Source: Solirubrobacteraceae bacterium
GTDB taxonomy: Bacteria > Actinomycetota > Thermoleophilia > Solirubrobacterales > Solirubrobacteraceae
Reading direction: 5' to 3'
Length of the DNA: 32,131 bases
NCBI GenBank assembly: GCA_017882375.1
Contig: JADGPP010000034.1
Location: forward strand, 1 to 32,131
Part shown: positions 668 through 29,409 of the stretch, in pieces
Layout: each line of letters starts with the position of its first letter
Position numbering within the stretch: position 1 is the stretch's first letter
Notes under the pieces: model-generated
Database searches by the model: none
The model's input: only the letters and a program-made list of their open reading frames with translations
Told to the model about the DNA's origin: nothing
Made by a program: the position numbers and the translations under genes

Positions 668-1867
668 TCACGCGCCGAATCCCACGCCGCGCATGAATGC
701 GAGCATCTCCTCGAGGTAGACGCCGCGGTTGAAATGCAGCACGTGGTTGCCCGGAAACCAATGGAGGCGGCAGCGACCCCAATGCTCCCAGAGCATGCGG
801 CTCTGCTCGGGCGGTGCAAGGCGGTCGGCCAGGCCGCCGATGATCATCCGGCGCTCGGGTGCGATCAGCGGCTTGTAGGTCAGCGGGCTATGCACCGCGA
901 GCGCTTGGTCGAACTCGTCGCGCCCGACGCGCGCCAGCTGCGCCCCGGCGGCGACGAGCAGGTTCGCGGGGAACCACTGGCGTATCAGCGGGCCTATGCT
1001 CACCACCGGCGCGTTGGGGATCGACAGCGCGAGGCGGTCGTCGACCTCCGCCAATAGCGCCGCGACGTAGCCGCCAAGCGATAGGCCGGTGACGGCGACC
1101 TGTTCGACCCCCTGCGCCATGAGGTTGTCGACGAAGACGCGGAAGTCGTATACGGCTTGGAAGATCGCCTCGTTGAGGTGCGCGAGGCCGTGCGCGAACA
1201 GACCCCAGCCGCTGAACGGCACCGACTTCGGCTGACGCTCGCCGTGGAACGGGAGCACGTAGAGGAGGATGTCGTAGCCGTGGCCGTACAGCCACGGCAG
1301 GTTGAAGAATGCGCTGTTGAGCCAGTACGGCGAGGCGCCGAAGCCGTGGATCACGCATAGCGTCGGGCGGGGACCGTCGTCGTGGCACCAGCGCTGGGCC
1401 CACGCGGTGTGATTCTCCGAAAAGCCGGCGTAGGAGTCCCGCACGGCCGGGTTGATAGCCGCGAACGGGCTGTCGAAGCGCAGCATCTCGACGTGTCCAC
1501 CGGGAGGGCGGAACGCGAAGCGCGGGGCGGGGAGCGTCGTCACCGGCACGTCCGCCGCGGGAGCCGGGAACGCGGCCTGCGGATCAGCGGCCTCGGCGAG
1601 CTTCTGGTAGAACGCGAGCCGCGGTCGCTCCCGGCGAACGTTGCCCGGCAGGGCCCACGTCAGGATCGGGACCGATAGGACGGACGCGACCGCCGTGCGC
1701 AGGAGCGTGTCGGTCGCGGCCGAACCCCGCACCACGAGGCGCGTCGAGCACGACAGCCCGGAGAGCCCTGGCCGGCCCTCGACCGCCGCCGCGCCCTCTG
1801 TCTCGAGGTCATCCAACGCCGGGGCCGCGCCAATGATGGCGGCGATGCTTCTCTCCAGTGCTTCCAT
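668..1867 (-). CDS. Alpha/beta hydrolase (ABHD18-like lipase/esterase)
   Basis: A 399-residue serine hydrolase. The core begins near residue 168 with the oxyanion-hole motif HGFG (174-177). The nucleophile elbow is GLSLGG with Ser263. A likely acid is the Asp in GGLADRLAPP and the likely histidine is in GNHVLHF near the C-terminus. The spacing and the 'LPFHGER' segment resemble the ABHD18 group of alpha/beta hydrolases; substrate unknown, probably an ester or lipid. The N-terminal 160 residues are a less conserved cap or lead-in with no clear signal peptide. The start is ATG with AGGAG 7 nt upstream. That AGGAG overlaps the stop of a 33-codon ORF, so the two are probably translationally coupled. 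It is transcribed divergently from a thiolase gene. Confidence 0.85.
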   Translation of the reverse strand: MEALERSIAAIIGAAPALDDLETEGAAAVEGRPGLSGLSCSTRLVVRGSAATDTLLRTAVASVLSVPILTWALPGNVRRERPRLAFYQKLAEAADPQAAFPAPAADVPVTTLPAPRFAFRPPGGHVEMLRFDSPFAAINPAVRDSYAGFSENHTAWAQRWCHDDGPRPTLCVIHGFGASPYWLNSAFFNLPWLYGHGYDILLYVLPFHGERQPKSVPFSGWGLFAHGLAHLNEAIFQAVYDFRVFVDNLMAQGVEQVAVTGLSLGGYVAALLAEVDDRLALSIPNAPVVSIGPLIRQWFPANLLVAAGAQLARVGRDEFDQALAVHSPLTYKPLIAPERRMIIGGLADRLAPPEQSRMLWEHWGRCRLHWFPGNHVLHFNRGVYLEEMLAFMRGVGFGA

Positions 1868-16568: not shown

Positions 16569-17101
16569 GGCGCTTCCCCGACCACTCGGCGACCGATGCG
16601 GTCTCGGCCGGCGACCCTTGGGGCCCGGTGCGCCGCGCGGCTCTCGCGGATGCGCACGCCCAAGCCGACCGCCTGCCCGATCAGGCGCGCGAGTGCAGCG
16701 CAGCCGCGGTGGTCGCGGCCCGCCAACGCGCCGACGAGCTGCGCGAGGACTCGCTGGTCCAGGCACGACGGGCGGCCGATGCCGACGCCCAACGGGTGCT
16801 GTCCTCCGCGCGGGCCAGCGCCCGCGGGCTGCTGCTGTCGGCGCGCAGGGATGTCTACGGCGCCGTCGTTCGCGACCTCGCCGAGCAGGCGTCGAGCCGA
16901 CGCAACGACTATCAGGCGGCGACTGAGCAGCTAATCGGCGATGCGCGGCGACGCCTGGGAGAGGACGTCGACATCTCCGCCGCGCCGGACGGCGGGATCA
17001 TCGCCCGCGTTCCGGGACGCCAGATCGACTACTCGCTCTCGACCCAGGTGGGGCGCTGCCTGGCCCAACTGGGCGACGAGGTGGCAGCGTTGTGGAGTTG
17101 A
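16565..17101 (+). CDS. V/A-type ATPase subunit E (peripheral stalk)
   Basis: A 178-residue protein. The N-terminal two thirds (about 20-110) form an Ala/Arg/Glu-rich helix typical of the stalk. The C-terminal globular part includes GGIIARVPGRQIDYSLSTQV, resembling the E-subunit domain that caps the A/B hexamer. It would pair with the coiled-coil protein encoded at 13190. The GTG start overlaps the F stop by 4 nt. Its own end overlaps subunit A by 10 nt. In Thermus and Enterococcus operons E comes before C and F; here it follows F. Confidence 0.75.
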
Positions 17102-18819
17102 GCGCCGGCACGATCACACGCGTGAACGGGCCGATCGTCGAGGTCGCAGGTATGCGCCGCCTCGGCGTCGGCGAACTGGTGACGGTCGGATCGCGGCGGC
17201 TGCCGGGCGAGGTGCTCTCGCTGGCGAGCGGGGGGGCGACTGTGCAGGTCTACGAAGATACCTCCGGGCTGCGCCCCGGCGAGGCGATCGCGGCGACCGG
17301 GCATCCGCTCAGCGCCGAGCTGGGTCCCGGCCTGCTCGGCGGCGTCTTCGACGGCATGCTCCGGCGCCTGCAGGACGCCGGCTCCTGGCTCGAGCCGGGG
17401 ACCCTAGCCGGCGCGCTGGACCCCGAGCGGCGCTGGCGCTTCACACCGAGCGTTCGGGCCGGCGAAGACGTGGGCCCCCACCGCGTCCTCGGCACGGTGC
17501 CCGAGACCGACGCGATCACCTACCGCGTGCTCGTCCCGCACGAGCTCGCCGGCAAGGTCGAGATGATCGCCGACGAGGGCGAGTTCACCGTCGGCGAGGC
17601 AATCGCAACCGTCGCCGGACGCGAGATCACGCTCGCCCACAGATGGCCTGTGCGCCGCCCGCGGCCGGCCGCCGGCCGCCTGAGGTCCGGCCGGCCGCTG
17701 GTCACCGGTCAGCGCGCCGTCGACCTGCTGTTCCCGCTCTGTCACGGCAGCACCGCGGCGGTGCCGGGGGGGTTCGGCACCGGCAAGACGCTGCTGCTGC
17801 AGCAGATCGCGAAGTGGTGTGACGCCGACGTGATCGTCTACGTCGGCTGCGGCGAGCGCGGCAACGAGCTCGCCGAGTTGCTCGAGGACTTCGCCGAGCT
17901 CGAGGACCCGCGCAGCGGCCACCGTCTGATGGAGCGCACGGTCACGATCGTCAACACCTCCAACATGCCGCTGCTCGCGCGCGAGGCCAGCATCTACACG
18001 GGCGTGACGGTCGCCGAGCACTACCGCGACATGGGCTACGACGCCGTCGTCATCGCGGACTCGACCTCGCGCTGGGCGGAGGCGCTGCGCGAGTCGGCGG
18101 CGCGCACCGACGAGCTGCCCGCGGAGGAGGGCTATCCGCCGGAGCTGTCCTCGACGCTGGCGGCCTTCTACGAGCGCGCCGGGCGCTTCCGGACGCTGGG
18201 CGGCGAGGAGGCGTCGGTGACGATCCTCGGCGCCGTCTCGCCGCCCGGCGGGGACCTGGCCGAGCCGGTCACGGCACACACGCGGCGGTTCGTGCGGACC
18301 GTCTGGTCGCTCGACCGCCAGCTCGCCTACGCTCGCCATCATCCGGCAATCAGCTGGACCGACTCGTCCTCGCGCGACGCCGAGGCGGTAGCAGCGTGGG
18401 AGGCCGCCGAGGGCAACGCCGGCTGGGCCGGGCGGCGCCGGGAAGCCTTGCAGCTGCTGTTCGACGCCGAGCGGATCGCGTCGGTCGCTCAGCTGACGGG
18501 TGTCGAGAGCCTACCGGCCGCCGAGCGCGTCACGCTGATCTCAGCCATGCTGCTGCGCGAGGGGGTGCTCCAGCAGAGCGCGCTGAGCCTCAACGATCGC
18601 AACTGCGCACCTTCAAAGCAGGCCGCGCTGCTCGCGCTGGTGCTCGAAGTCCACCGAGCGCTGCTGGCGTCGGCGGGCCAGGGCACGGCGATCGAGCGCA
18701 TCGAAGCGCTCGACCTCTCCGACGTCGCGCGCATCCGCGACGAGTGCGCCCCCGATGACGTCGACGCCATTGCGCGGCTGCAGGCCGACATCCAGGGCCG
18801 CATCGGGCAGCTTGGATGA
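17092..18819 (+). CDS. atpA: V/A-type ATPase catalytic subunit A
   Basis: A 575-residue catalytic subunit that hydrolyses or synthesises ATP. The N-terminal barrel begins GTITRVNGPIVEVAG. The non-homologous insert typical of A subunits covers about residues 110-190. The Walker A motif is GGFGTGKT (226-233). The catalytic-glutamate region CGERGNELAELLEDF and the Walker B/switch segment VVIADSTSRWAEALRE are intact. The GTG start lies 10 nt inside the E gene. The motif set says V/A-type, not F-type beta. Base composition is the same as in the flanking genes, so there is no sign of recent transfer. Confidence 0.95.
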   Translation: MELSAGTITRVNGPIVEVAGMRRLGVGELVTVGSRRLPGEVLSLASGGATVQVYEDTSGLRPGEAIAATGHPLSAELGPGLLGGVFDGMLRRLQDAGSWLEPGTLAGALDPERRWRFTPSVRAGEDVGPHRVLGTVPETDAITYRVLVPHELAGKVEMIADEGEFTVGEAIATVAGREITLAHRWPVRRPRPAAGRLRSGRPLVTGQRAVDLLFPLCHGSTAAVPGGFGTGKTLLLQQIAKWCDADVIVYVGCGERGNELAELLEDFAELEDPRSGHRLMERTVTIVNTSNMPLLAREASIYTGVTVAEHYRDMGYDAVVIADSTSRWAEALRESAARTDELPAEEGYPPELSSTLAAFYERAGRFRTLGGEEASVTILGAVSPPGGDLAEPVTAHTRRFVRTVWSLDRQLAYARHHPAISWTDSSSRDAEAVAAWEAAEGNAGWAGRRREALQLLFDAERIASVAQLTGVESLPAAERVTLISAMLLREGVLQQSALSLNDRNCAPSKQAALLALVLEVHRALLASAGQGTAIERIEALDLSDVARIRDECAPDDVDAIARLQADIQGRIGQLG

Positions 18820-20273
18820 CCGCGGCACGCAAGCCGGATGAAGACCGGGGCGAGGATCCGGTGGAGCTGCCGCCGCAGCCGATCGAGTACAGCTCGACGA
18901 CCTCGATTCGTGGGCCGTTGATCGTCGTCGAGGGGGTCGAGGGCATCGGCTGGAACGAGGTCGCCGAGATCCGGCTGGCCAACGGCGAGGTGCGCCACGG
19001 CGTCGTCCTCGACGTCCACCTCGACCATGCGATCGTCGAGGTTCTCGAGGGCACTGCGGGCATGCGGCTGGACGGGGTGCGCACCGCGTTCGGCGGCGGT
19101 CCGATGAGCGTGCCGGTCACCGAAGACTGGCTCGGGCGGGTGTGCGACGGCCGCGGAGAGCCGCTAGACGAAGGCCCGCCGATCCTCGGCAGCCGGCGCC
19201 GCGAGATCACGGGCACGCCGATCAACCCCGCCGTGCGCATCCCGCCCAGCGAGCCGATCATCACCGGCATCAGCGCAATCGACGGGCTTGCGACACTCGT
19301 GCGCGGCCAGAAGCTGCCGATCTTCTCGGTCGGCGGCCTCCCGCACCTAGAGCTCGCCGCCCAGATCGCCGTCCAAGCCGACGTCGCGGGCGAGCCGTTC
19401 GCAGTCGTGTTCGCGGCGCTCGGGGTGACTCACGCCGACGCCGCGTCGGTACGGCAAACGCTCGAGGCGCGCGCCGGCGAGCGCGAGGCGGTGCTGTTCA
19501 TCAACACGGCCGACGATCCGGTCGTCGAGCGCCTAATGACCCCGCGGCTGGCGCTGACGGTCGCCGAGCACCTCGCCTTCGAGTGCGACCGGCATGTGCT
19601 CGTCCTGCTGGCCGATGTCACCAACTACGCGGAGGCACTGCGGCAGGTCTCGGCTGCCCGTGGGGAGGTTCCAACGCGGCGCGGCTACCCCGGCTACCTT
19701 TACAGCGACCTCGCCTCGCTCTTCGAGCGAGCCGGTCGCATGCGCGACCGCGCGGGGTCGGTGACGCTCGTGCCGGTGCTGACGATGCCCGCCGGCGACA
19801 TCACCCATCCGGTGCCCGACCTGACCGGCTACATCACCGAGGGCCAGCTCGTGCTTGCAAAGGACCTCCACGCGCGTGGCGTCTACCCGCCGCTGGACCT
19901 GATGGGGTCGCTGTCGCGCCTGATGCGCCGCGGAACCGGAGCGCACCTTACGCGCGAAGACCATCCCGAGCTCTCAGACCAGCTCTACGCCCTGACCGCC
20001 CGAGCACTCCAGGCGGCCGAGCTCGCCGAGATCGTCGGCGCCGATGCCCTGCCGGCCGCCGACCAGCGCCTGCTCACATTTCGCGCGACGCTCGAGCGCG
20101 AGTTCCTCAGCCAGGGGCAGGAGGAGGCCCGCACGCTCGAGACGACGCTCGACCTCGGCTGGCAGGTGGCCTCGCAGCTGCCGGCTGCCGAGCTGACGAT
20201 GGTCAGTCGCCAGACGCTTGCCGCGCGCTATCGAGCGAAGGAGGGCGATGCCGCGCACGGGCACGTCAGGTAA
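18816..20273 (+). CDS. atpB: V/A-type ATPase non-catalytic subunit B
   Basis: A 485-residue subunit forming the A3B3 hexamer. After an extra charged N-terminus of about 20 residues comes IEYSSTTSIRGPLIVVEGVE. The nucleotide-binding fold shows ISAIDGLATLVRGQKLPIFS and, in place of a Walker A loop, VGGLPHLELAAQIA, as expected for B subunits, which lack P-loop catalysis. LLADVTNYAEALRQVSAARG and RRGYPGYLYSDLASLFERAG are strongly conserved family signatures. ATGA overlap with subunit A; its last 26 nt overlap subunit D. Confidence 0.95.
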   Translation: MTAARKPDEDRGEDPVELPPQPIEYSSTTSIRGPLIVVEGVEGIGWNEVAEIRLANGEVRHGVVLDVHLDHAIVEVLEGTAGMRLDGVRTAFGGGPMSVPVTEDWLGRVCDGRGEPLDEGPPILGSRRREITGTPINPAVRIPPSEPIITGISAIDGLATLVRGQKLPIFSVGGLPHLELAAQIAVQADVAGEPFAVVFAALGVTHADAASVRQTLEARAGEREAVLFINTADDPVVERLMTPRLALTVAEHLAFECDRHVLVLLADVTNYAEALRQVSAARGEVPTRRGYPGYLYSDLASLFERAGRMRDRAGSVTLVPVLTMPAGDITHPVPDLTGYITEGQLVLAKDLHARGVYPPLDLMGSLSRLMRRGTGAHLTREDHPELSDQLYALTARALQAAELAEIVGADALPAADQRLLTFRATLEREFLSQGQEEARTLETTLDLGWQVASQLPAAELTMVSRQTLAARYRAKEGDAAHGHVR

Positions 20274-23273: not shown

Positions 23274-24572
23274 ATGCCCAGCACCGACACGGCAACGGCC
23301 GGCATGGAGTCGACCAGCACCGGCGATGGCGTCGAGATCTCTGCGCCGAACGAGGTTCGGGCGCTGAGCGCCCTGGCTTTTGACGAGTTGCGCAGTTTCC
23401 CCGGCGCGATCCGCGACATGCACCTCGGCATCGCCGAGCGCGCCTTCCGTGGCGTGGGCCCGGCGGGTCGCCCGGTGCAGCTCATCCACGACGCGCTGTC
23501 GAGTCGCGCCTATGGCGCGATCGGCGCGGGCGCCTCAGCGCTCGGGAAGGCCGCCGACACGGCGATGGAGCGACGCGGGGTCGGCGAGCGGACCTCGCTG
23601 TCCACCACCCAGAAGGGCAGTTTCGGGCTCGCCGTGCTCAATGGCCTCATCGGGGACCGGCTGGAGCGCGAGGGCAGCGCGCTTGCCCAGGCCGCCTCAG
23701 CGCGGATGCACGGTGAGCGGATCGGGCTGAATGAGCCCTCGCTTCGCGACGCGTTCCCGCAGGCCACTCCTCGCCTGGCAGTCTTCATACACGGGCTGAC
23801 CGGGGATGAGTTCTGCTGGTCCTGGGGCGCCGAGGACGCGTATGGCGAACGGCTGGCCTCGGACCTCGACTGCACGGCGGTCTACCTGCGCTACAACAGC
23901 GGCCTGCACATCTCCGAAAACGGCCGCACGGTGGCGGCGCTGCTCGAGGAGCTCGTGGAGGCATGGCCGGTCGAGGTCGACCAGATCGCACTGGTCGGCC
24001 ACTCGATGGGCGGCCTGGTCGCGCGCAGCGCCGCCCATCAGGCGGATGAGCGCGACCACACCTGGGTACGGCACGTCCGGCATGTCGTCTCGCTGGGGAC
24101 CCCCCACCACGGTGCTCCCCTGGAGCAGGGGGCGCACCGGGCCGCGGTGGCGCTGCACAAGCTGCCCGAGACTCGGATGCTGGCAAGCTTCCTGAAAAAG
24201 CGCAGCGCCGGCATTCGCGACCTGCGCCACGGATCGCTGGTCGACGAGGACTGGCGGGGCCGCGACCCCGAGGCGCTGCGCGCGGTCGCCTGCCAGGAGG
24301 TGCCGCTGCTGCCAGGAGCAACCCACTGCTTCGTCTCAGCAACCATCACCCACGACCCGAAGCACCCGCTCGGACGCCTGCTCGGCGACATCCTCGTCCT
24401 GAAGCCCAGCGCCAGCGGCCAGAGCAAGACCCGGCGGATCCCCTTCCGCGACGAGCACGGACATCACATAGGAGGCACCCACCACCTCGCGCTGCTCAAC
24501 CACCCCGAGGTCTACGAGCGCCTCCAGGACTGGCTGGCAACGGCACCCCAGGCACTCGCCGCTCCCGCCTGA
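23274..24572 (+). CDS. PGAP1/lipase-like alpha/beta hydrolase
   Basis: A 432-residue serine hydrolase. The first 165 residues form a helical leader without a signal peptide. The hydrolase core starts at LAVFIHGLTGDEFCW. The nucleophile is Ser244 in VGHSMGGLVA. A conserved LGTPHHGAPLEQGA segment follows, typical of PGAP1-like and triacylglycerol-lipase-like enzymes. The likely catalytic histidine is in GTHHLALLNH near the C-terminus. The substrate is probably a lipid ester; the WS/DGAT gene downstream fits a role in storage-lipid turnover, by inference. ATG with AGGAG 6 nt upstream. Confidence 0.87.
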   Translation: MPSTDTATAGMESTSTGDGVEISAPNEVRALSALAFDELRSFPGAIRDMHLGIAERAFRGVGPAGRPVQLIHDALSSRAYGAIGAGASALGKAADTAMERRGVGERTSLSTTQKGSFGLAVLNGLIGDRLEREGSALAQAASARMHGERIGLNEPSLRDAFPQATPRLAVFIHGLTGDEFCWSWGAEDAYGERLASDLDCTAVYLRYNSGLHISENGRTVAALLEELVEAWPVEVDQIALVGHSMGGLVARSAAHQADERDHTWVRHVRHVVSLGTPHHGAPLEQGAHRAAVALHKLPETRMLASFLKKRSAGIRDLRHGSLVDEDWRGRDPEALRAVACQEVPLLPGATHCFVSATITHDPKHPLGRLLGDILVLKPSASGQSKTRRIPFRDEHGHHIGGTHHLALLNHPEVYERLQDWLATAPQALAAPA

Positions 24573-24607
24573 AGCTCGACGGGTCACCGAGCACGCTCGT
24601 TGGTCGT

Positions 24608-24634
24608 CCGGGCGCAAATGAGCAGGACGCCCGG
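24608..24634 (+). terminator. Possible terminator hairpin after the lipase-like gene
   Basis: CCGGGCG (24608-24614) pairs with CGCCCGG (24628-24634) across a 13-nt loop. TGTTT follows after a few bases. It is weaker than the terminator at 20954 but well placed, 36 nt beyond the stop. Confidence 0.4.
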
Positions 24635-24806
24635 GTGATCTGTTTGCGTAGCTTGAGCATGGCCACGTCCGAACTCTCTACGGATGGCACCGCCGGCGGG
24701 CCGGCCTATGGTCCTAGCTGAGGCGGTGGCAGGCGAGTGCTCGTCGATGGGCTTCCGTGAATGCAGTGGTGGCGGGACACACGTCCCGGGAAGGAGACAG
24801 ATTTCA

Positions 24807-25103
24807 ATGCCAGAGACCGAGGTTCGGGGCGGCGCAGTCGACCAGGCTGCCGAGCTCTCCGAGGAGGTGTTCGCGTCAGTCGAGTCGGGGCAGCGGGCTG
24901 CGATCGGGGCGGTGCGCAAATTCGTCGACACCGTCGACGAGAAGCTGCCGTCACTCGGCGATGAGCATCCGTCCAGGCGGCAAGACATCATCGACGCGGC
25001 GTTGGAGATGGCCGACCAGCTGGTTCACACCGAGTACGACTTCCTTCGCAAGGTCGCGCACAGTGCAGGCAAGGCGCTAGGCAGACCGGACGACGGGAAG
25101 TAG
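24807..25103 (+). CDS. 98-residue helical protein of unknown function, phasin-like candidate
   Basis: A short, soluble, helix-rich protein with heptad-like amphipathic stretches: AVDQAAELSEEVFASVESGQ, AAIGAVRKFVDTVDEKLP, and a C-terminal helix ending EYDFLRKVAHSAGKAL. No cysteines, no signal, no transmembrane helix. ATG with AAGGAGA 9 nt upstream. The repeated amphipathic pattern, and a location between a lipase-like gene and a WS/DGAT gene, would suit a lipid-droplet or granule surface protein. That is inference; the family was not identified. Separated from the WS/DGAT gene by a perfect hairpin at 25112-25144. Confidence 0.7.
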   Translation: MPETEVRGGAVDQAAELSEEVFASVESGQRAAIGAVRKFVDTVDEKLPSLGDEHPSRRQDIIDAALEMADQLVHTEYDFLRKVAHSAGKALGRPDDGK

Positions 25104-25111
25104 GGCGGCTT

Positions 25112-25144
25112 CTTGCGCGGCCGGCGCCGCGTCGGCCGCGCAAG
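25112..25144. terminator. Perfect 12-bp hairpin between the helical protein and WS/DGAT
   Basis: CTTGCGCGGCCG and CGGCCGCGCAAG are exact inverted repeats separated by 9 nt. It begins 9 nt after the stop of the upstream gene. There is no T-run. It may terminate or attenuate transcription, or protect the upstream message so that the small protein is made in excess over the acyltransferase. Confidence 0.55.
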
Positions 25145-25181
25145 GCTCAAAGCGGTCGACGCGGCGGCTTCCCTTCTTGCC

Positions 25182-26735
25182 ATGAGCGAGCACCTCACAC
25201 CCCTTGATGCGACGTTCCTCGAGCTCGAGGAGGTCGATGAGAGCGCACACATGCATACCGGCGTGATCATGGTCTTCGATCCTCAACCGCGCGGTGGTTC
25301 GCCGTCGCGCGAGGAAGTATGCCGGTACCTCGCGAGCCGGCTTGGGCAGCTGCCGCGCTACCGCCAGCGCCTGTCGGAGCCGCACACGGGCGGGATGTCG
25401 TGGCCCGAATGGCAGGACGATCCCGCATTTGACATCGGCAGGCACGTAGCCCGCGCGGCACTCCCCGCCCCCGGAGGCGATGAGGAGCTCGCGGAGTGGG
25501 CATCGGGCTTCTTCTCGCAGCGCTTGGATCGCCATCGGCCACTGTGGGAGATGGCGCTCGTCGAGGGGCTCGCCAACGGCAGATGGGCAATCGCCACCAA
25601 GACGCACCATTGCATGGTCGACGGTGTCGGCTCGGCGGACGTCGGCCACCTGCTGCTCGACACTACCGCGGACGCGGCGCCGGTTGATCCATCGTCGCCG
25701 TCCTTCGCGAGCGACGGGAGCGGCGCAGGCGCGCCCTCCTCTCTCGATGCCGACCGACCCACCTCCCACGCCCACCCCGCCACGCCCGGCTCGCTGGCTC
25801 GTCTGGCGCACGCATGGGCGGGACTGCTACCGGTCGACACCATGGTCCACGCCGCCGAGATGGGAACCCATGGGGTCCTTCACCCGCGTGACGCGCTGCG
25901 CAGTGCGAAAGCGGCGGTCGCCGTGATCGTGCGTGAGGAGCTGCGCGCGGCGCCGCGCACGAGTCTCAATCGGCCGATCGGCACGCTGCGCCGTTTCGAG
26001 GTCGTGCGCGTCCCGCTCGCGGACCTAAAGGAGATCAAGAACTCTCTCGGCGGCACGATCAACGATGTCGTACTCGCGGTCACCGCAAGCGGCCTCAGGG
26101 CGCTGCTCCAGTCGCGCGGCGAGGCACTGCCCGCGGGAGGGCTGCGAGCGATGGTCCCGATCAACGTCCGCGCTGCCGGGGAGCGCCTCGCACTGGGGAA
26201 CCGAGTCTCCTCGCTATACGTGGAGCTGCCTGTCGCGGAGGCGGATCCAGTGCTGCGCTATGGCGAAACCGTGGCCCGCTCGGACTCGCTGAAGTCCGAG
26301 GGACAACAGGCGCTGGGCACCACTGCCGTGATCGAGCTGGCAGGACTGGCGCCACCGGTAATCCATGCCACCATGGCGCAGGCCATCTACGCCACGCGGC
26401 TGTTCAACGTGACCGTCACCAACGTGCCCGGTCCTCAGCAGACGCTATACGCCTTGGGGGCGCCAATGCGCGAGGTCTATCCGCTTGTGCCGCTCGCCGC
26501 CGAGCACGCCGTCGGAGTTGCCGCGGCGAGCTATGACGGCAACGTGTTCTTCGGCGTGGTCGCCGACCGCGACGCGGTGCCAGACCTCGAGGTTCTGCTG
26601 AGCTCCCTGGCTGCCTCGGTCCAGGACCTTTTGTCTGCGGCCCGCTCGGACGGAGGGGTCTCAGCCGACGGCGCCCCTGGCGACTCGCGCCCCCGCCGAC
26701 CACGCGCGGCTCACGATGCGAACGGCGTGCGCTGA
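25182..26735 (+). CDS. Wax ester synthase / diacylglycerol acyltransferase (WS/DGAT)
   Basis: A 517-residue O-acyltransferase that esterifies fatty alcohols or diacylglycerol with acyl-CoA, making wax esters or triacylglycerol. The family opening is LTPLDATFLELE. The catalytic motif HHxxxDG is HHCMVDG (142-148). The second conserved block (NDVVLAV, with NVRAAGERLALGNRVSSLYV) and the NVPGPQQTLYALGAPMREVY segment are present. The enzyme would act at the membrane or lipid-droplet surface. ATG 25182 gives the family-typical start; the frame is open to 25113 without support. No Shine-Dalgarno sequence is visible. An Ala/Ser-rich insert lies around 165-205. Preference for wax ester or triacylglycerol cannot be read off. 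Confidence 0.92.
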   Translation: MSEHLTPLDATFLELEEVDESAHMHTGVIMVFDPQPRGGSPSREEVCRYLASRLGQLPRYRQRLSEPHTGGMSWPEWQDDPAFDIGRHVARAALPAPGGDEELAEWASGFFSQRLDRHRPLWEMALVEGLANGRWAIATKTHHCMVDGVGSADVGHLLLDTTADAAPVDPSSPSFASDGSGAGAPSSLDADRPTSHAHPATPGSLARLAHAWAGLLPVDTMVHAAEMGTHGVLHPRDALRSAKAAVAVIVREELRAAPRTSLNRPIGTLRRFEVVRVPLADLKEIKNSLGGTINDVVLAVTASGLRALLQSRGEALPAGGLRAMVPINVRAAGERLALGNRVSSLYVELPVAEADPVLRYGETVARSDSLKSEGQQALGTTAVIELAGLAPPVIHATMAQAIYATRLFNVTVTNVPGPQQTLYALGAPMREVYPLVPLAAEHAVGVAAASYDGNVFFGVVADRDAVPDLEVLLSSLAASVQDLLSAARSDGGVSADGAPGDSRPRRPRAAHDANGVR

Positions 26736-26838: not shown

Positions 26839-28014
26839 TCATGCGTGCGTGGTCGGCGCCCGCCGAGCCGGAGGTGTCTTGCGTGCCCCACGGGTTGCGA
26901 CCTTCCTCGACTTGGTCGAAGCGGAGACTCGTGGAGCCCGACGGAGGGCATCGAACGCACGCGTGGCCCGCTCGTAGCCGTCCCGGATCAGCGCCGGCCA
27001 GCGACTGCGATCGATGAAGAGGTCATAGAAGGCAGGGCCGCGCAGGAGGCGGTGGTCGGCCGCGTCGATGATCGTGAGGCGGCTCCCGAGGGTCGCGCGC
27101 AGCCGGTTCGCGAACTCGAGCTGGACACCTTGCTCGGCCTGGCGGCTCGCTTTGAGAATGCCCATCCGCTTGTCCTGCCAGCCGGTGATGTCCTCCGGCT
27201 CAAGCTGGGGTGGAAGCATGAAGTTCACGCCGAAGACGTGGTCGAACCCGCCATCGCGCAGGATCGGCTCGGCGGGAAGAAGCTCGATGATCCCGCCGTC
27301 CACGTACAGGTGCCCGTCGACCTCGACGGACTCGATGAACAGAGGCAGCGCGATGGCGATGCGCACGAGCCGCCCGAGCGTCAGGTCCGGCTTGGAGGCG
27401 CTGCCGAAGTAGTCGACGGTCCCTCGGTCCATGTCGTAGACGATCGATTCGAGGGGCACGCCGAGCTCGCCCACCTTCAACGATCCAAAGCGCTCGTTGA
27501 AGGTACGTTCGATCGCCTCGCCCTTGGCGAGGCCGGTGAAGCCCTTCAACGCGGCGGCTGCGTAGCGAGGTACCTTCGCCCACTGGATGTCGAGATAGTC
27601 CTCCAGGTGCCACGAGAGCGAGAACTCGGTCATCTGCTCTGCGCTCATACCTGCCGCCCACATGGATCCCCAGATCGTCCCGCCGGAGCAGGCCGTGATC
27701 AGCGCCGGCTCGACGCCTGCCTCCTCGAACGCCCGCCGCACGCCGATGAGCGACACGCACGCCCCCGCCCCGCCGCCGGCGATCAGCGCCACGCGCCGGC
27801 CCTCGAACGCAGACACGGGACGTCGCCTGAACGGCGGAAAGACGTCAGTGTCCACGACCCCCGGGCGGTCCACAATCGGAAGCGGGAACAGTGCACGTCG
27901 AGCTCGCAAGAGGAACCGGGGGTCGATCGTCGCCTTGATCAGCTCGCCCCGCTCGCGCGCCCAGCCGAACCCCATCAGGACGTTGTACAGATCGAGGTCG
28001 AGACGACCGGCCAT
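26839..28014 (-). CDS. Patatin-like phospholipase with altered nucleophile elbow
   Basis: A 391-residue patatin-family acyl hydrolase. The oxyanion-hole loop AGGGAGACVS lies at about 79-88. The catalytic serine would be Ser110 in ACSGGTIWG, where the first Gly of GxSxG is Ala. The catalytic Asp is in the DGG of LYVDGGIIE. The C-terminus is a basic Arg/Lys/Ala tail. ATG 28014 was chosen because GAGGAG lies 9 nt upstream. The frame is open to 28332, but that extension crosses the tRNA-derived repeat at 28204-28245 and is unlikely to be coding; ATG 28146 is the other option. It faces the WS/DGAT gene tail to tail. It could release fatty acids from stored or membrane lipid. Confidence 0.85.
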   Translation of the reverse strand: MAGRLDLDLYNVLMGFGWARERGELIKATIDPRFLLRARRALFPLPIVDRPGVVDTDVFPPFRRRPVSAFEGRRVALIAGGGAGACVSLIGVRRAFEEAGVEPALITACSGGTIWGSMWAAGMSAEQMTEFSLSWHLEDYLDIQWAKVPRYAAAALKGFTGLAKGEAIERTFNERFGSLKVGELGVPLESIVYDMDRGTVDYFGSASKPDLTLGRLVRIAIALPLFIESVEVDGHLYVDGGIIELLPAEPILRDGGFDHVFGVNFMLPPQLEPEDITGWQDKRMGILKASRQAEQGVQLEFANRLRATLGSRLTIIDAADHRLLRGPAFYDLFIDRSRWPALIRDGYERATRAFDALRRAPRVSASTKSRKVATRGARKTPPARRAPTTHA

Positions 28015-28374
28015 CCCGTGATGCTCCTCGTCACCGTCGGCTGGCGTCAGCGCAGATTGCCGTGGACACGATTCGGAAAACCACTGTGGCGCGCGCTTCG
28101 CATCGACCTCGGTGGCCGTATCGGCTGGGGCGGGACTGGCGGACATCGGGCGAGTGCCCTGCGCGGCCGACCGGATCAATGAGTCTCGCAGGTACTTCTC
28201 GAATGGCGAGACCCGGACTCGAACCGGGGACACCACGATTTTCAGGGACGGGTAACTGGGCCAGCAAGAGCCCGACTGCCGGGCGCTCACGTGACGGCAC
28301 CACCTTCGGGGTAGCCCCGACCTCGGCTCCACCCAGGCAAACCCCGACGGGGCACATCGCCTGGCGGGCCTGCG
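28015..28374. other. Intergenic region between two patatin genes
   Basis: About 360 bases between the end of one minus-strand patatin gene and the start of the other. It holds the tRNA-Phe fragment (28204-28245) and its non-tRNA flank. Nothing else is recognised; the open frames here are shadows of the tRNA-like sequence. Confidence 0.45.
28204..28245 (-). pseudogene. 3' half of a tRNA-Phe gene (repeat copy B)
   Basis: On the minus strand the 42 bases start with CTGAAAA, an anticodon loop with GAA (Phe), followed by the 3' anticodon stem TCGTG, variable loop GTGTC, T arm CCCGG-TTCGAGT-CCGGG, acceptor 3' strand TCTCGCC and discriminator A. The 5' side of the anticodon stem should be CACGA but reads CGTCC, and no D arm or 5' acceptor strand is present. 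It is therefore not a functional tRNA. Such 3' tRNA halves are the usual product of integrase-mediated insertion. The adjacent bases 28246-28262 match the flank of copy A. Confidence 0.75.
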
Positions 28375-29409
28375 TCAGGCTCTGCGCGGTGGGGTCGGTG
28401 CTGCCGTCGCCGCTACGGACGTCGCCGCTACGGACGTCGCGGCGATGCCGGCCGCGTCGAGTACCGCGGCGGCGTGCTCCAACGCGAGCTGCCCGGCCGC
28501 CTCGAGGACAGCCGGGCGGCGCTCCAGCTGTCCGACCTCGGGTCCGCCGCGCGCCAGGCGCAGTCCGTAGACGAAAGGCGCGCCCGGGCCGGGCTCGCTG
28601 GTCGCGGCCGCGATCTCGCCCACGACGGTCTCGTAGTCGGAGGCGCGGCGGTGGTACAACTCGAGGAGCGCCGGGTTGAGCCTGCGCAGCCGGCGCTCGA
28701 TGATCCGGTTGGCGAGTCGCGGCGGGGGCGTACGCGAGACTCCGAGCGGCCGCGTCATCAGCACCAGTGCATGCGTCGCGCCGAGCCGCACCGCCACCTG
28801 ATGCGGGATCGCTTCGGCGAGCCCGCCGTCGAGCCACCGCCGCCCGCGGAACTCGACCGGCCCGCCGCCGATCCAGGGCATGCGGCTCGACGCCAGCAGG
28901 GCGCATCGCAGATCCTCCTCCGAGCGCAGGTCGGTGAGGTCACCGGCGAGCGCGGTGTCGACGTCGACCGCGATGCAGTGCAGGGGGATGCGGCTCGCCA
29001 CGGTCCTCGAATGGCGCGCGGCGTCGAGCCGCTCGTCGGCGTGGTCGAGCGTGAAGGCAACGTCGATCGCGGCGCGCCCGATCAGCAGCCGATACGGGTT
29101 GATGAAACGGCGCGTGGCGAACGAGGCGTGATAGGCCGCCAGGCAGCCCTCGACGACGCCGGCCAAGAACGCCGCAGCGTTGAGCGCTCCGGCCGACGTG
29201 CCAACGACAAGATCGAAGCAGTCGAGCAGTCGCCGGCGCTCCAGCGCACTCGCCATGCCCGCGGAGACGACCCCACGCATCCCGCCCCCCTCCAGCACGA
29301 GCGCAAGCCGGTGACCGTCCGCGCGCGCTCCGGGTCGCCTGCCATGCGTCGCGCGCTCGCGCAGCAGCGCCAGCACGGGATGTGACTCTGACACCGGGCA
29401 GACGATCAC
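28375..29409 (-). CDS. Patatin-like phospholipase
   Basis: A 344-residue patatin-family hydrolase with intact motifs: oxyanion loop EGGGMRG (40-46), nucleophile Ser72 in GTSAG (70-74), and the catalytic Asp in WLDGGLAEA. It has no signal peptide. GTG 29409 was chosen because it overlaps the amidase stop as GTGA; GTG 29394 (SESHPVLALL) is possible. A much longer open frame in the same register runs antisense-free through the amidase gene but is shadow sequence. The C-terminal tail is Ala/Thr/Pro-rich and contains a 15-bp tandem repeat. Similar bacterial proteins are annotated as esterases of the RssA/YjjU type; substrate unknown. Confidence 0.87.
   Translation of the reverse strand: MIVCPVSESHPVLALLRERATHGRRPGARADGHRLALVLEGGGMRGVVSAGMASALERRRLLDCFDLVVGTSAGALNAAAFLAGVVEGCLAAYHASFATRRFINPYRLLIGRAAIDVAFTLDHADERLDAARHSRTVASRIPLHCIAVDVDTALAGDLTDLRSEEDLRCALLASSRMPWIGGGPVEFRGRRWLDGGLAEAIPHQVAVRLGATHALVLMTRPLGVSRTPPPRLANRIIERRLRRLNPALLELYHRRASDYETVVGEIAAATSEPGPGAPFVYGLRLARGGPEVGQLERRPAVLEAAGQLALEHAAAVLDAAGIAATSVAATSVAATAAPTPPRRA
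28406..28435. repeat. 15-bp tandem repeat in the patatin C-terminal coding region
   Basis: GTCGCCGCTACGGAC occurs twice without a gap (28406-28420 and 28421-28435), with a partial third copy after it. It encodes the ATSVAATSVA run at the protein's C-terminus. The 15-bp unit keeps the frame, so copy-number changes would only lengthen the tail. Confidence 0.85.

What the first reader, a model, noticed from the sequence alone, without database searches (positions are those of the whole stretch)
23274..26735. Lipid-storage cluster with a candidate droplet-coating small protein
A PGAP1/lipase-like hydrolase, a 98-residue amphipathic-helix protein and WS/DGAT lie in one direction, with a patatin facing them. 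The small protein has a strong ribosome binding site and is followed by a perfect hairpin, which would suit high expression of a structural protein compared with the enzyme. A new phasin-like lipid-droplet protein is possible.
Basis: inference. Interest (0 to 1): 0.5.

Follow-up and report, generated by a model that had tools for sequence, protein, structure and literature searches.

The report
Phasin-like coat protein beside fat-synthesis gene
A small two-helix protein encoded next to a fat-storage enzyme in a soil actinobacterium is a distant relative of proteins encoded beside bacterial bioplastic-making enzymes, which makes it a good but untested candidate for the coat of bacterial fat droplets.

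Summary
In detail: a PGAP1-like hydrolase (23274-24572), a 98-residue protein (24807-25103) and WS/DGAT (25182-26735) lie on the + strand; a patatin (26839-28332) faces them. The small protein has no Pfam match and belongs to an unnamed actinobacterial family, with seven matches (one partial) in this genome. It is predicted as two long helices. Its profile matches, both ways and with clean reversed controls, small proteins beside PHA synthase (PhaC): in 11 of 11 phylum genomes holding both (one window-type genome set aside) the two lie within 2.3 kb. The window's genome has no PhaC_N hit but 11-13 WS/DGAT matches; of 38 carriers of the window-type family tested, 29 lack PhaC_N and 38 have WS/DGAT. 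WS/DGAT lies within 2.3 kb in 5 of 39 synteny groups (p 7e-4; 4 of 39, p 0.005, without a fragment), one holding 26 Mycobacterium loci. Many members carry Lys/Ala-rich tails as PhaF and MLDS do; the window copy has none. Weak Pfam Phasin_2 matches are an artefact: reversed sequences match more often. Best reading: a phasin-like coat of neutral-lipid droplets, related to proteins of PHA loci. Droplet binding is inferred; 34 of 39 synteny groups have no WS/DGAT nearby.

The parts
24807..25103 (+). 98-residue two-helix protein, the candidate droplet coat (start ATG 24807)
25182..26735 (+). WS/DGAT wax ester synthase / diacylglycerol acyltransferase, 517 aa
   Evidence: a 90% identical homologue directly downstream of the small gene in L066 and a 79% identical one beside a family gene in L009
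23274..24572 (+). PGAP1-like alpha/beta hydrolase (lipase-like), 432 aa
   Evidence: 70% identical homologue next to the family gene and near WS/DGAT in L074, in another orientation
26839..28332 (-). patatin-like lipid hydrolase facing the three genes (gene start uncertain; my own gene caller prefers 28014)
   Evidence: 72% identical homologue, cut by the contig end, 1 kb from another family copy in L009
25113..25143 (+). perfect 11-bp inverted repeat between the small gene and WS/DGAT; function unknown, no T-run

Best explanation
The 98-residue protein is a phasin-like structural protein that coats triacylglycerol or wax-ester droplets. SHOWN: it belongs to an actinobacterial family with a core of about 80 residues, predicted as two long helices; the family is homologous to small proteins encoded beside PHA synthase; the carriers of the window type that were tested have WS/DGAT, most lack PhaC_N, and WS/DGAT is a neighbour more often than chance would give. 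INFERRED: the helices lie on the droplet surface with their apolar faces toward the lipid, the protein is made in step with WS/DGAT, limits coalescence and sets droplet number, and the neighbouring hydrolase and patatin mobilise the lipid. Paralogues with Lys/Ala-rich tails may also tether droplets to DNA, as PhaF and MLDS tails bind DNA; the window copy lacks the tail and would be a plain coat.
For: Homology to PhaC-linked proteins: hhalign 98.5%, E 3.7e-15 over 77 columns, against 1.3% for the reversed and under 1% for ten column-shuffled controls; HMMER both ways 10 of 10 and 37 of 37 at E 1e-3, reversed 0 of 10 and 0 of 37 (best reversed E 0.094 and 0.0014). In 381 phylum genomes the PhaC-linked profile matched 23 and PhaC_N 44, 12 in common, Fisher p 7e-7; without the two genomes whose match is window-type (G000, G596), 11 of 21 have PhaC_N (p 1.8e-6) and in 11 of 11 the two matches lie on one contig 374-2275 bp apart. 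Window-type family: no PhaC_N hit in the own genome (96% complete); 11 of 13 carriers in the order and 18 of 25 genomes chosen from those behind the 63 named loci lack it, against WS/DGAT in 13 of 13 and 25 of 25. WS/DGAT within 2.3 kb in 33 of 88 loci and in 5 of 39 synteny groups, p 6.5e-4 at a chance rate of 1.8%. In the genus, the 5 carriers have more WS/DGAT matches than the 19 others (p 0.001).
Against: 34 of 39 synteny groups have no WS/DGAT within 2.3 kb; one of the five that do rests on a 37-bit fragment (L077), and without it p is 0.005. The family is patchy (13 strong of 232 genomes in the order; 12 of 396 in the phylum at E 1e-5, distant members included), so most genomes with WS/DGAT do without it. 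WS/DGAT is in 227 of 232 order genomes, so mere co-occurrence says little. One close member lies 3 kb from PhaC (L072). Some carriers of PhaC-linked members also have WS/DGAT (G531, G604, G273). The Pfam Phasin_2 weak matches count for nothing: reversed cores match in 20 of 37 against 6 of 37 forward. Foldseek finds nothing specific, and the model is only pLDDT 72.5, pTM 0.43. PF07167 may miss class III/IV PHA synthases (recalled, not tested).
Confidence: 0.68

Rival explanations
1. It is an ordinary PHA-granule phasin and its place beside WS/DGAT is incidental.
For: The homologous branch lies beside PhaC in 11 of 11 genomes with both; one close member (L072) is 3 kb from PhaC; PhaC_N is found in 7 of 25 genomes of named loci and in G106 and G156 of the 13 carriers in the order.
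Against: No PhaC_N hit in the own genome or in the four other same-genus carriers, none in 29 of 38 tested carriers; the tree sets the PhaC-linked branch apart (99/98), though it has few columns and long branches; WS/DGAT adjacency beyond chance.
Confidence: 0.1
2. It is a soluble helical partner or chaperone of WS/DGAT or of the lipases (a regulator or scaffold of the enzyme), not a coat.
For: Direct adjacency to WS/DGAT in several arrangements; small acidic helical protein (net charge -8).
Against: Most loci have the gene without WS/DGAT within 2.3 kb (55 of 88); seven matches in one genome fit a structural protein better than a dedicated partner; homologues go with a different enzyme, PhaC.
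Confidence: 0.12
3. It is a nucleoid- or stress-associated protein; the basic-tailed paralogues bind DNA and the lipid neighbours are a side issue.
For: Tails of net charge up to +40 in a same-genus member (L030) and +25 in an Acidimicrobiaceae member (L126); 2 of 41 members match the histone H1-like family HC2; many loci lie beside other genes such as lipocalin, GGDEF or kinase.
Against: The window copy, and the mycobacterial copies measured, have no such tail; the conserved part is the helical core, and that core is shared with the PhaC-linked branch.
Confidence: 0.08

Closest known systems
Phasins of PHA granules (Pfam PF05597, PF09361, PF09602, PF09650; PhaP, PhaF)
   Same: Small amphipathic helical proteins encoded beside the storage-polymer synthase; PhaF-like basic tails in many members
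   Different: No match above any phasin model's cut-off; weak Phasin_2 matches fail the reversed control; 29 of 38 tested carriers of the window type lack PhaC_N, and the window copy lies beside WS/DGAT
MLDS / TadA / HBHA, lipid-droplet proteins of Rhodococcus and Mycobacterium
   Same: Actinobacterial helical proteins with Lys/Ala PAKKA-type tails tied to TAG droplets; HBHA-like genes (label recalled) have as neighbour an XRE regulator of the same family as the one beside PhaC-linked relatives
   Different: HBHA-like proteins show no detectable homology to either profile (E 0.09-1 or nothing); no such regulator was found in the window's genome; the window protein is about half the length, and tails are N-terminal in Solirubrobacterales
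GA14 phasin of Rhodococcus ruber
   Same: Small actinobacterial PHA-granule protein (PMC5658603, passages read); that it is encoded near PhaC is recalled
   Different: Described as binding through two hydrophobic C-terminal patches; sequence not available here, not compared

Membership tests
Phasin (Pfam phasin families) | Match to PF05597, PF09361, PF09602 or PF09650 above the curated cut-off | tested here: not met
   Window protein: no match at E 1. Members: only weak PF09361 matches (15 of 41, best E 0.0026; 6 of 37 cores), exceeded by reversed sequences (20 of 37, best 0.00029)
Phasin (functional sense) | Small, mostly helical, amphipathic protein | tested here: met
   two helices, pLDDT 72.5; family-average moment: helix 1 0 of 3000 shuffles, helix 2 134 of 3000; single sequence borderline
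Phasin (functional sense) | Encoded with a storage-inclusion synthase | tested here: met
   Window: WS/DGAT begins 78 bp downstream. Family: WS/DGAT in 5 of 39 synteny groups, PhaC in 2 of 39. PhaC-linked branch: 11 of 11 genomes with both
Phasin (functional sense) | Binds the surface of the inclusion and changes its size or number | not testable with these tools
   Needs microscopy and droplet proteomics
MLDS/TadA/HBHA family | Detectable sequence homology to HBHA-like proteins | tested here: not met
   HBHA-like neighbours of the regulator score E 0.09-1 or nothing with both profiles. MLDS and TadA sequences themselves were not available
MLDS/TadA/HBHA family | Lys-rich PAKKA-type tail that binds DNA | tested here: not met
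   Window copy has no tail (11 residues before the core, net -1); present in other members, for example L126, L118, L030
MLDS/TadA/HBHA family | XRE regulator beside the coat gene (MLDSR) | tested here: not met
   No match at 1e-15 in G000; found beside many PhaC-linked relatives (one checked with Pfam)

The most novel reading that the evidence does not exclude
One actinobacterial superfamily of two-helix coat proteins serves both kinds of storage inclusion: one branch coats PHA granules, with PhaC and an MLDSR-like regulator beside it, and the other has moved to triacylglycerol/wax-ester droplets in bacteria that mostly lack PhaC, has duplicated (seven matches in the window's genome) and has gained or lost basic DNA-tethering tails.
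Probability: 0.45. Interest if true: 0.72.

Novelty: new variant of a known kind. Interest (0 to 1): 0.58.

Why it matters
Few coat proteins of bacterial neutral-lipid droplets are known (MLDS, TadA/HBHA, PspA and PPE15 are those named in the passages I read). A phasin-related coat would link the plastic-granule and the fat-droplet worlds by descent and supply an actinobacterial phasin family that the databases lack; the RHA1 storage paper left open which small genes near PhaC are phasins (PMC2667194, passage read). It could also give a small natural tag for oil bodies. It is directly testable in laboratory mycobacteria or Rhodococcus.

Tried and rejected
Pfam Phasin_2 similarity: at first the most-hit family (15 of 41); rejected after reversed cores matched it more often; the PhaC-linked relatives hardly match it either (1 of 10, E 0.13). 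NCBIfam phasin_2 at E 0.1 dismissed likewise. PDB sequence searches returned mostly designed helical bundles. Foldseek against the PDB: best E 1.2, unspecific helices. Presence of WS/DGAT in the order: 227 of 232, uninformative. One search's 32 of 232 includes many 25-residue matches inside frames of 400 residues and more; I counted the 13 genomes with E under 1e-10 and dropped 19, among them G007 (E 5e-7), which counts as a non-carrier in the genus comparison. Homology to HBHA: tested, not found. Terminator reading of the hairpin: no T-run, a competing stem, stem imperfect in the relative. The patatin and the PGAP1-like hydrolase are not constant partners: one other locus each among those searched.

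Literature: searches listed no paper on a phasin-like protein beside WS/DGAT in Actinomycetota; PMC10351704 mentions a putative phasin on one pseudomonadotal WS/DGAT scaffold (passages). The library holds open-licence papers only, so this is weak evidence of absence. Of the papers used I saw passages (PMC5504291, PMC5658603, PMC10351704, PMC2667194) or abstract and passages (PMC10699116), none whole. Recalled, not seen here: that the phasin PhaP1 goes to TAG inclusions in Rhodococcus and Mycobacterium when expressed there; that the neighbour of hbhA in M. tuberculosis is Rv0474; the label HBHA for the proteins.

Limits of the counts: genes and synteny groups come from my own gene caller and blastp, and the 1.8% chance rate is estimated from WS/DGAT counts per genome. 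The 88 loci include three places held twice (L088/L162, L089/L163, L091/L167) and ten loci of the PhaC-linked branch. WS/DGAT counts scored at most 10 candidates in most genomes. The tree has few columns, 22 of 50 inner branches open and long branches. The PhaC-linked alignment was recruited by the family profile, so searches are not independent of that recruitment; the PhaC adjacency is.
Full report
WHAT IS THERE. On the + strand lie a PGAP1-like hydrolase (23274-24572), a 98-residue protein (24807-25103) and WS/DGAT (25182-26735); a patatin (26839-28332) and a second patatin (28375-29376) lie on the other strand. The gap between the small gene and WS/DGAT is 78 bp and holds a perfect 11-bp inverted repeat without a T-run. 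The window is one contig of a 3.57-Mb, 96%-complete genome; the closest named match is in a Solirubrobacteraceae metagenome assembly, 95% identical.

THE FAMILY. The window protein has no Pfam match. The own genome holds seven matches, one of them partial, on five contigs. In the order, 13 of 232 genomes have a match under 1e-10. A scan of a collection of 84,980 species genomes gave 63 loci in Solirubrobacterales, Mycobacterium, Mycolicibacterium, Nocardia, Blastococcus, Acidimicrobiaceae and a few other Actinomycetota; that scan works through two short patterns and must miss members. The core is about 80 residues. AlphaFold gives two long helices (4-46, 55-92) with pLDDT 72.5 and pTM 0.43; a hairpin is the likely arrangement, but I did not inspect the packing. 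In the family average, helix 1 is strongly amphipathic (0 of 3000 shuffles) and helix 2 weakly (134 of 3000). Many members carry a Lys/Arg/Ala-rich tail: N-terminal and of net charge +4 to +40 in most Solirubrobacterales members measured (about 0 in L072 and L089, -5 in L006), C-terminal in two of four Acidimicrobiaceae members measured (L118 +16, L126 +25) (sequences). The window copy, its relative L066 and the mycobacterial copies measured have none (net -3 to +3).

LINK TO PHA. The profile found matches in 12 of 396 phylum genomes. Four of these carry window-type members (G000, G269, G582, G596). In six of the other eight (G273, G316, G446, G531, G540, G604) a distant member lies within 1.3 kb of PHA synthase; PhaC_N was confirmed with Pfam in the two scanned, L156 and L151 (1e-61, 2e-62), and an XRE-type regulator in the one scanned, L156. 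Profile to profile, the window family and the distant members align over 77 columns at 98.5%; the reversed and ten shuffled controls give 1.3% and under 1%, and HMMER searches both ways find 10 of 10 and 37 of 37 forward and no reversed sequence at E 1e-3. With the distant profile, 23 of 381 genomes match and 44 have PhaC_N, 12 in common (Fisher p 7e-7). Without the two genomes whose match is window-type, 11 of 21 have PhaC_N, and in 11 of 11 the two matches lie on one contig, 374 to 2275 bp apart. By contrast, the weak Phasin_2 matches are not evidence, because reversed cores match more often.

LINK TO NEUTRAL LIPID. The own genome has no PhaC_N hit and 11 to 13 WS/DGAT matches, some of them fragments. 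Of 13 carriers in the order 11 lack PhaC_N; of 25 genomes that I chose from those behind the 63 named loci, 18 lack it; WS/DGAT is in 13 of 13 and 25 of 25. WS/DGAT is in 227 of 232 genomes of the order, so its presence there says little. Of the 36 genomes, three have none (G316, G540, G446), and all three carry PhaC-linked members; but three other PhaC-linked carriers have one to five (G531, G604, G273). Within the genus, carriers have 11, 9, 8, 5 and 4 WS/DGAT matches against 1 to 6 in the 19 others (p 0.001). WS/DGAT lies within 2.3 kb of a family gene in 33 of 88 loci and in 30 of the 63 named ones. Twenty-six of these are one conserved Mycobacterium arrangement: WS/DGAT, an alpha/beta hydrolase, then the family gene divergently. 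Collapsed to synteny groups it is 5 of 39, where about 1.8% each is expected (p 6.5e-4; 4 of 39, p 0.005, without the fragment in L077). L068 and L074 repeat the theme in other orientations, L074 with a 70% identical PGAP1-like hydrolase. In other loci the neighbours are mixed: acyltransferase, lipocalin, GGDEF, kinase, antiporter.

MECHANISM. Amphipathic helices lying on the inclusion are the proposed mode for phasins, and PhaF adds a basic AAKP-repeat domain that binds DNA (PMC5658603, passages). In Rhodococcus, MLDS binds DNA through PAKKA motifs (PMC5504291, passages). The family has the same two modules, a helical core and an optional basic tail. I infer that the window copy is a tail-less coat for TAG or wax-ester droplets made by the neighbouring WS/DGAT, with hydrolase and patatin as candidates for mobilisation. 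None of the droplet steps is shown.

RELATION TO MLDS/HBHA. The XRE regulator beside PhaC-linked relatives has a strong match in 19 of 21 genomes searched; not in the window's genome nor in G624. In the five other genomes with a match no such neighbour was seen. MLDSR, the regulator of MLDS, is likewise a short XRE protein in one operon with its coat gene (PMC5504291, passages). HBHA-like proteins are not detectably homologous to the family. So the regulator, not the coat sequence, is the shared element.

VERDICT. A real, unnamed family, homologous to PhaC-linked proteins and tied by context to neutral-lipid storage. It is not a member of the Pfam phasin families and not an HBHA/MLDS, but it most likely works like a phasin on fat droplets.

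Noticed in passing
L009 228-927; L091 1481-2276; L166 6195-7120: Tandem pairs of family genes in three genomes; one of each pair has a C-terminal tail of the VDVDVNVDVD kind. Meaning unknown.
   Followed up: no
L215, L216, L217, L219, L222, L223 (genomes G283, G407, G256, G241, G267, G294): Genomes without a PhaC_N match that have relatives of the PhaC-linked branch, with Lys/Ala tails, beside the same XRE regulator: perhaps a further droplet-coat group.
   Followed up: partly
   Followed up: partly
L214 946-1770 (G415): About 150 residues of AAKEQ-type repeats before a phasin-like domain.
   Followed up: no
L089 5779-6264: Family core behind an extra N-terminal domain; one of the 41 members scanned matches DUF1508, most likely this one.
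   Followed up: no
window 25101-25165: Two mutually exclusive strong stems between the small gene and WS/DGAT; could be an attenuator or chance in GC-rich DNA.
   Followed up: partly
window 17092-20273: Genes for the two large subunits of a V/A-type ATP synthase (PF00006, PF22919).
   Followed up: no
window 668-1867: An alpha/beta hydrolase on the - strand, about 32% identical to the hydrolase between WS/DGAT and the family gene in Mycobacterium.
   Followed up: partly
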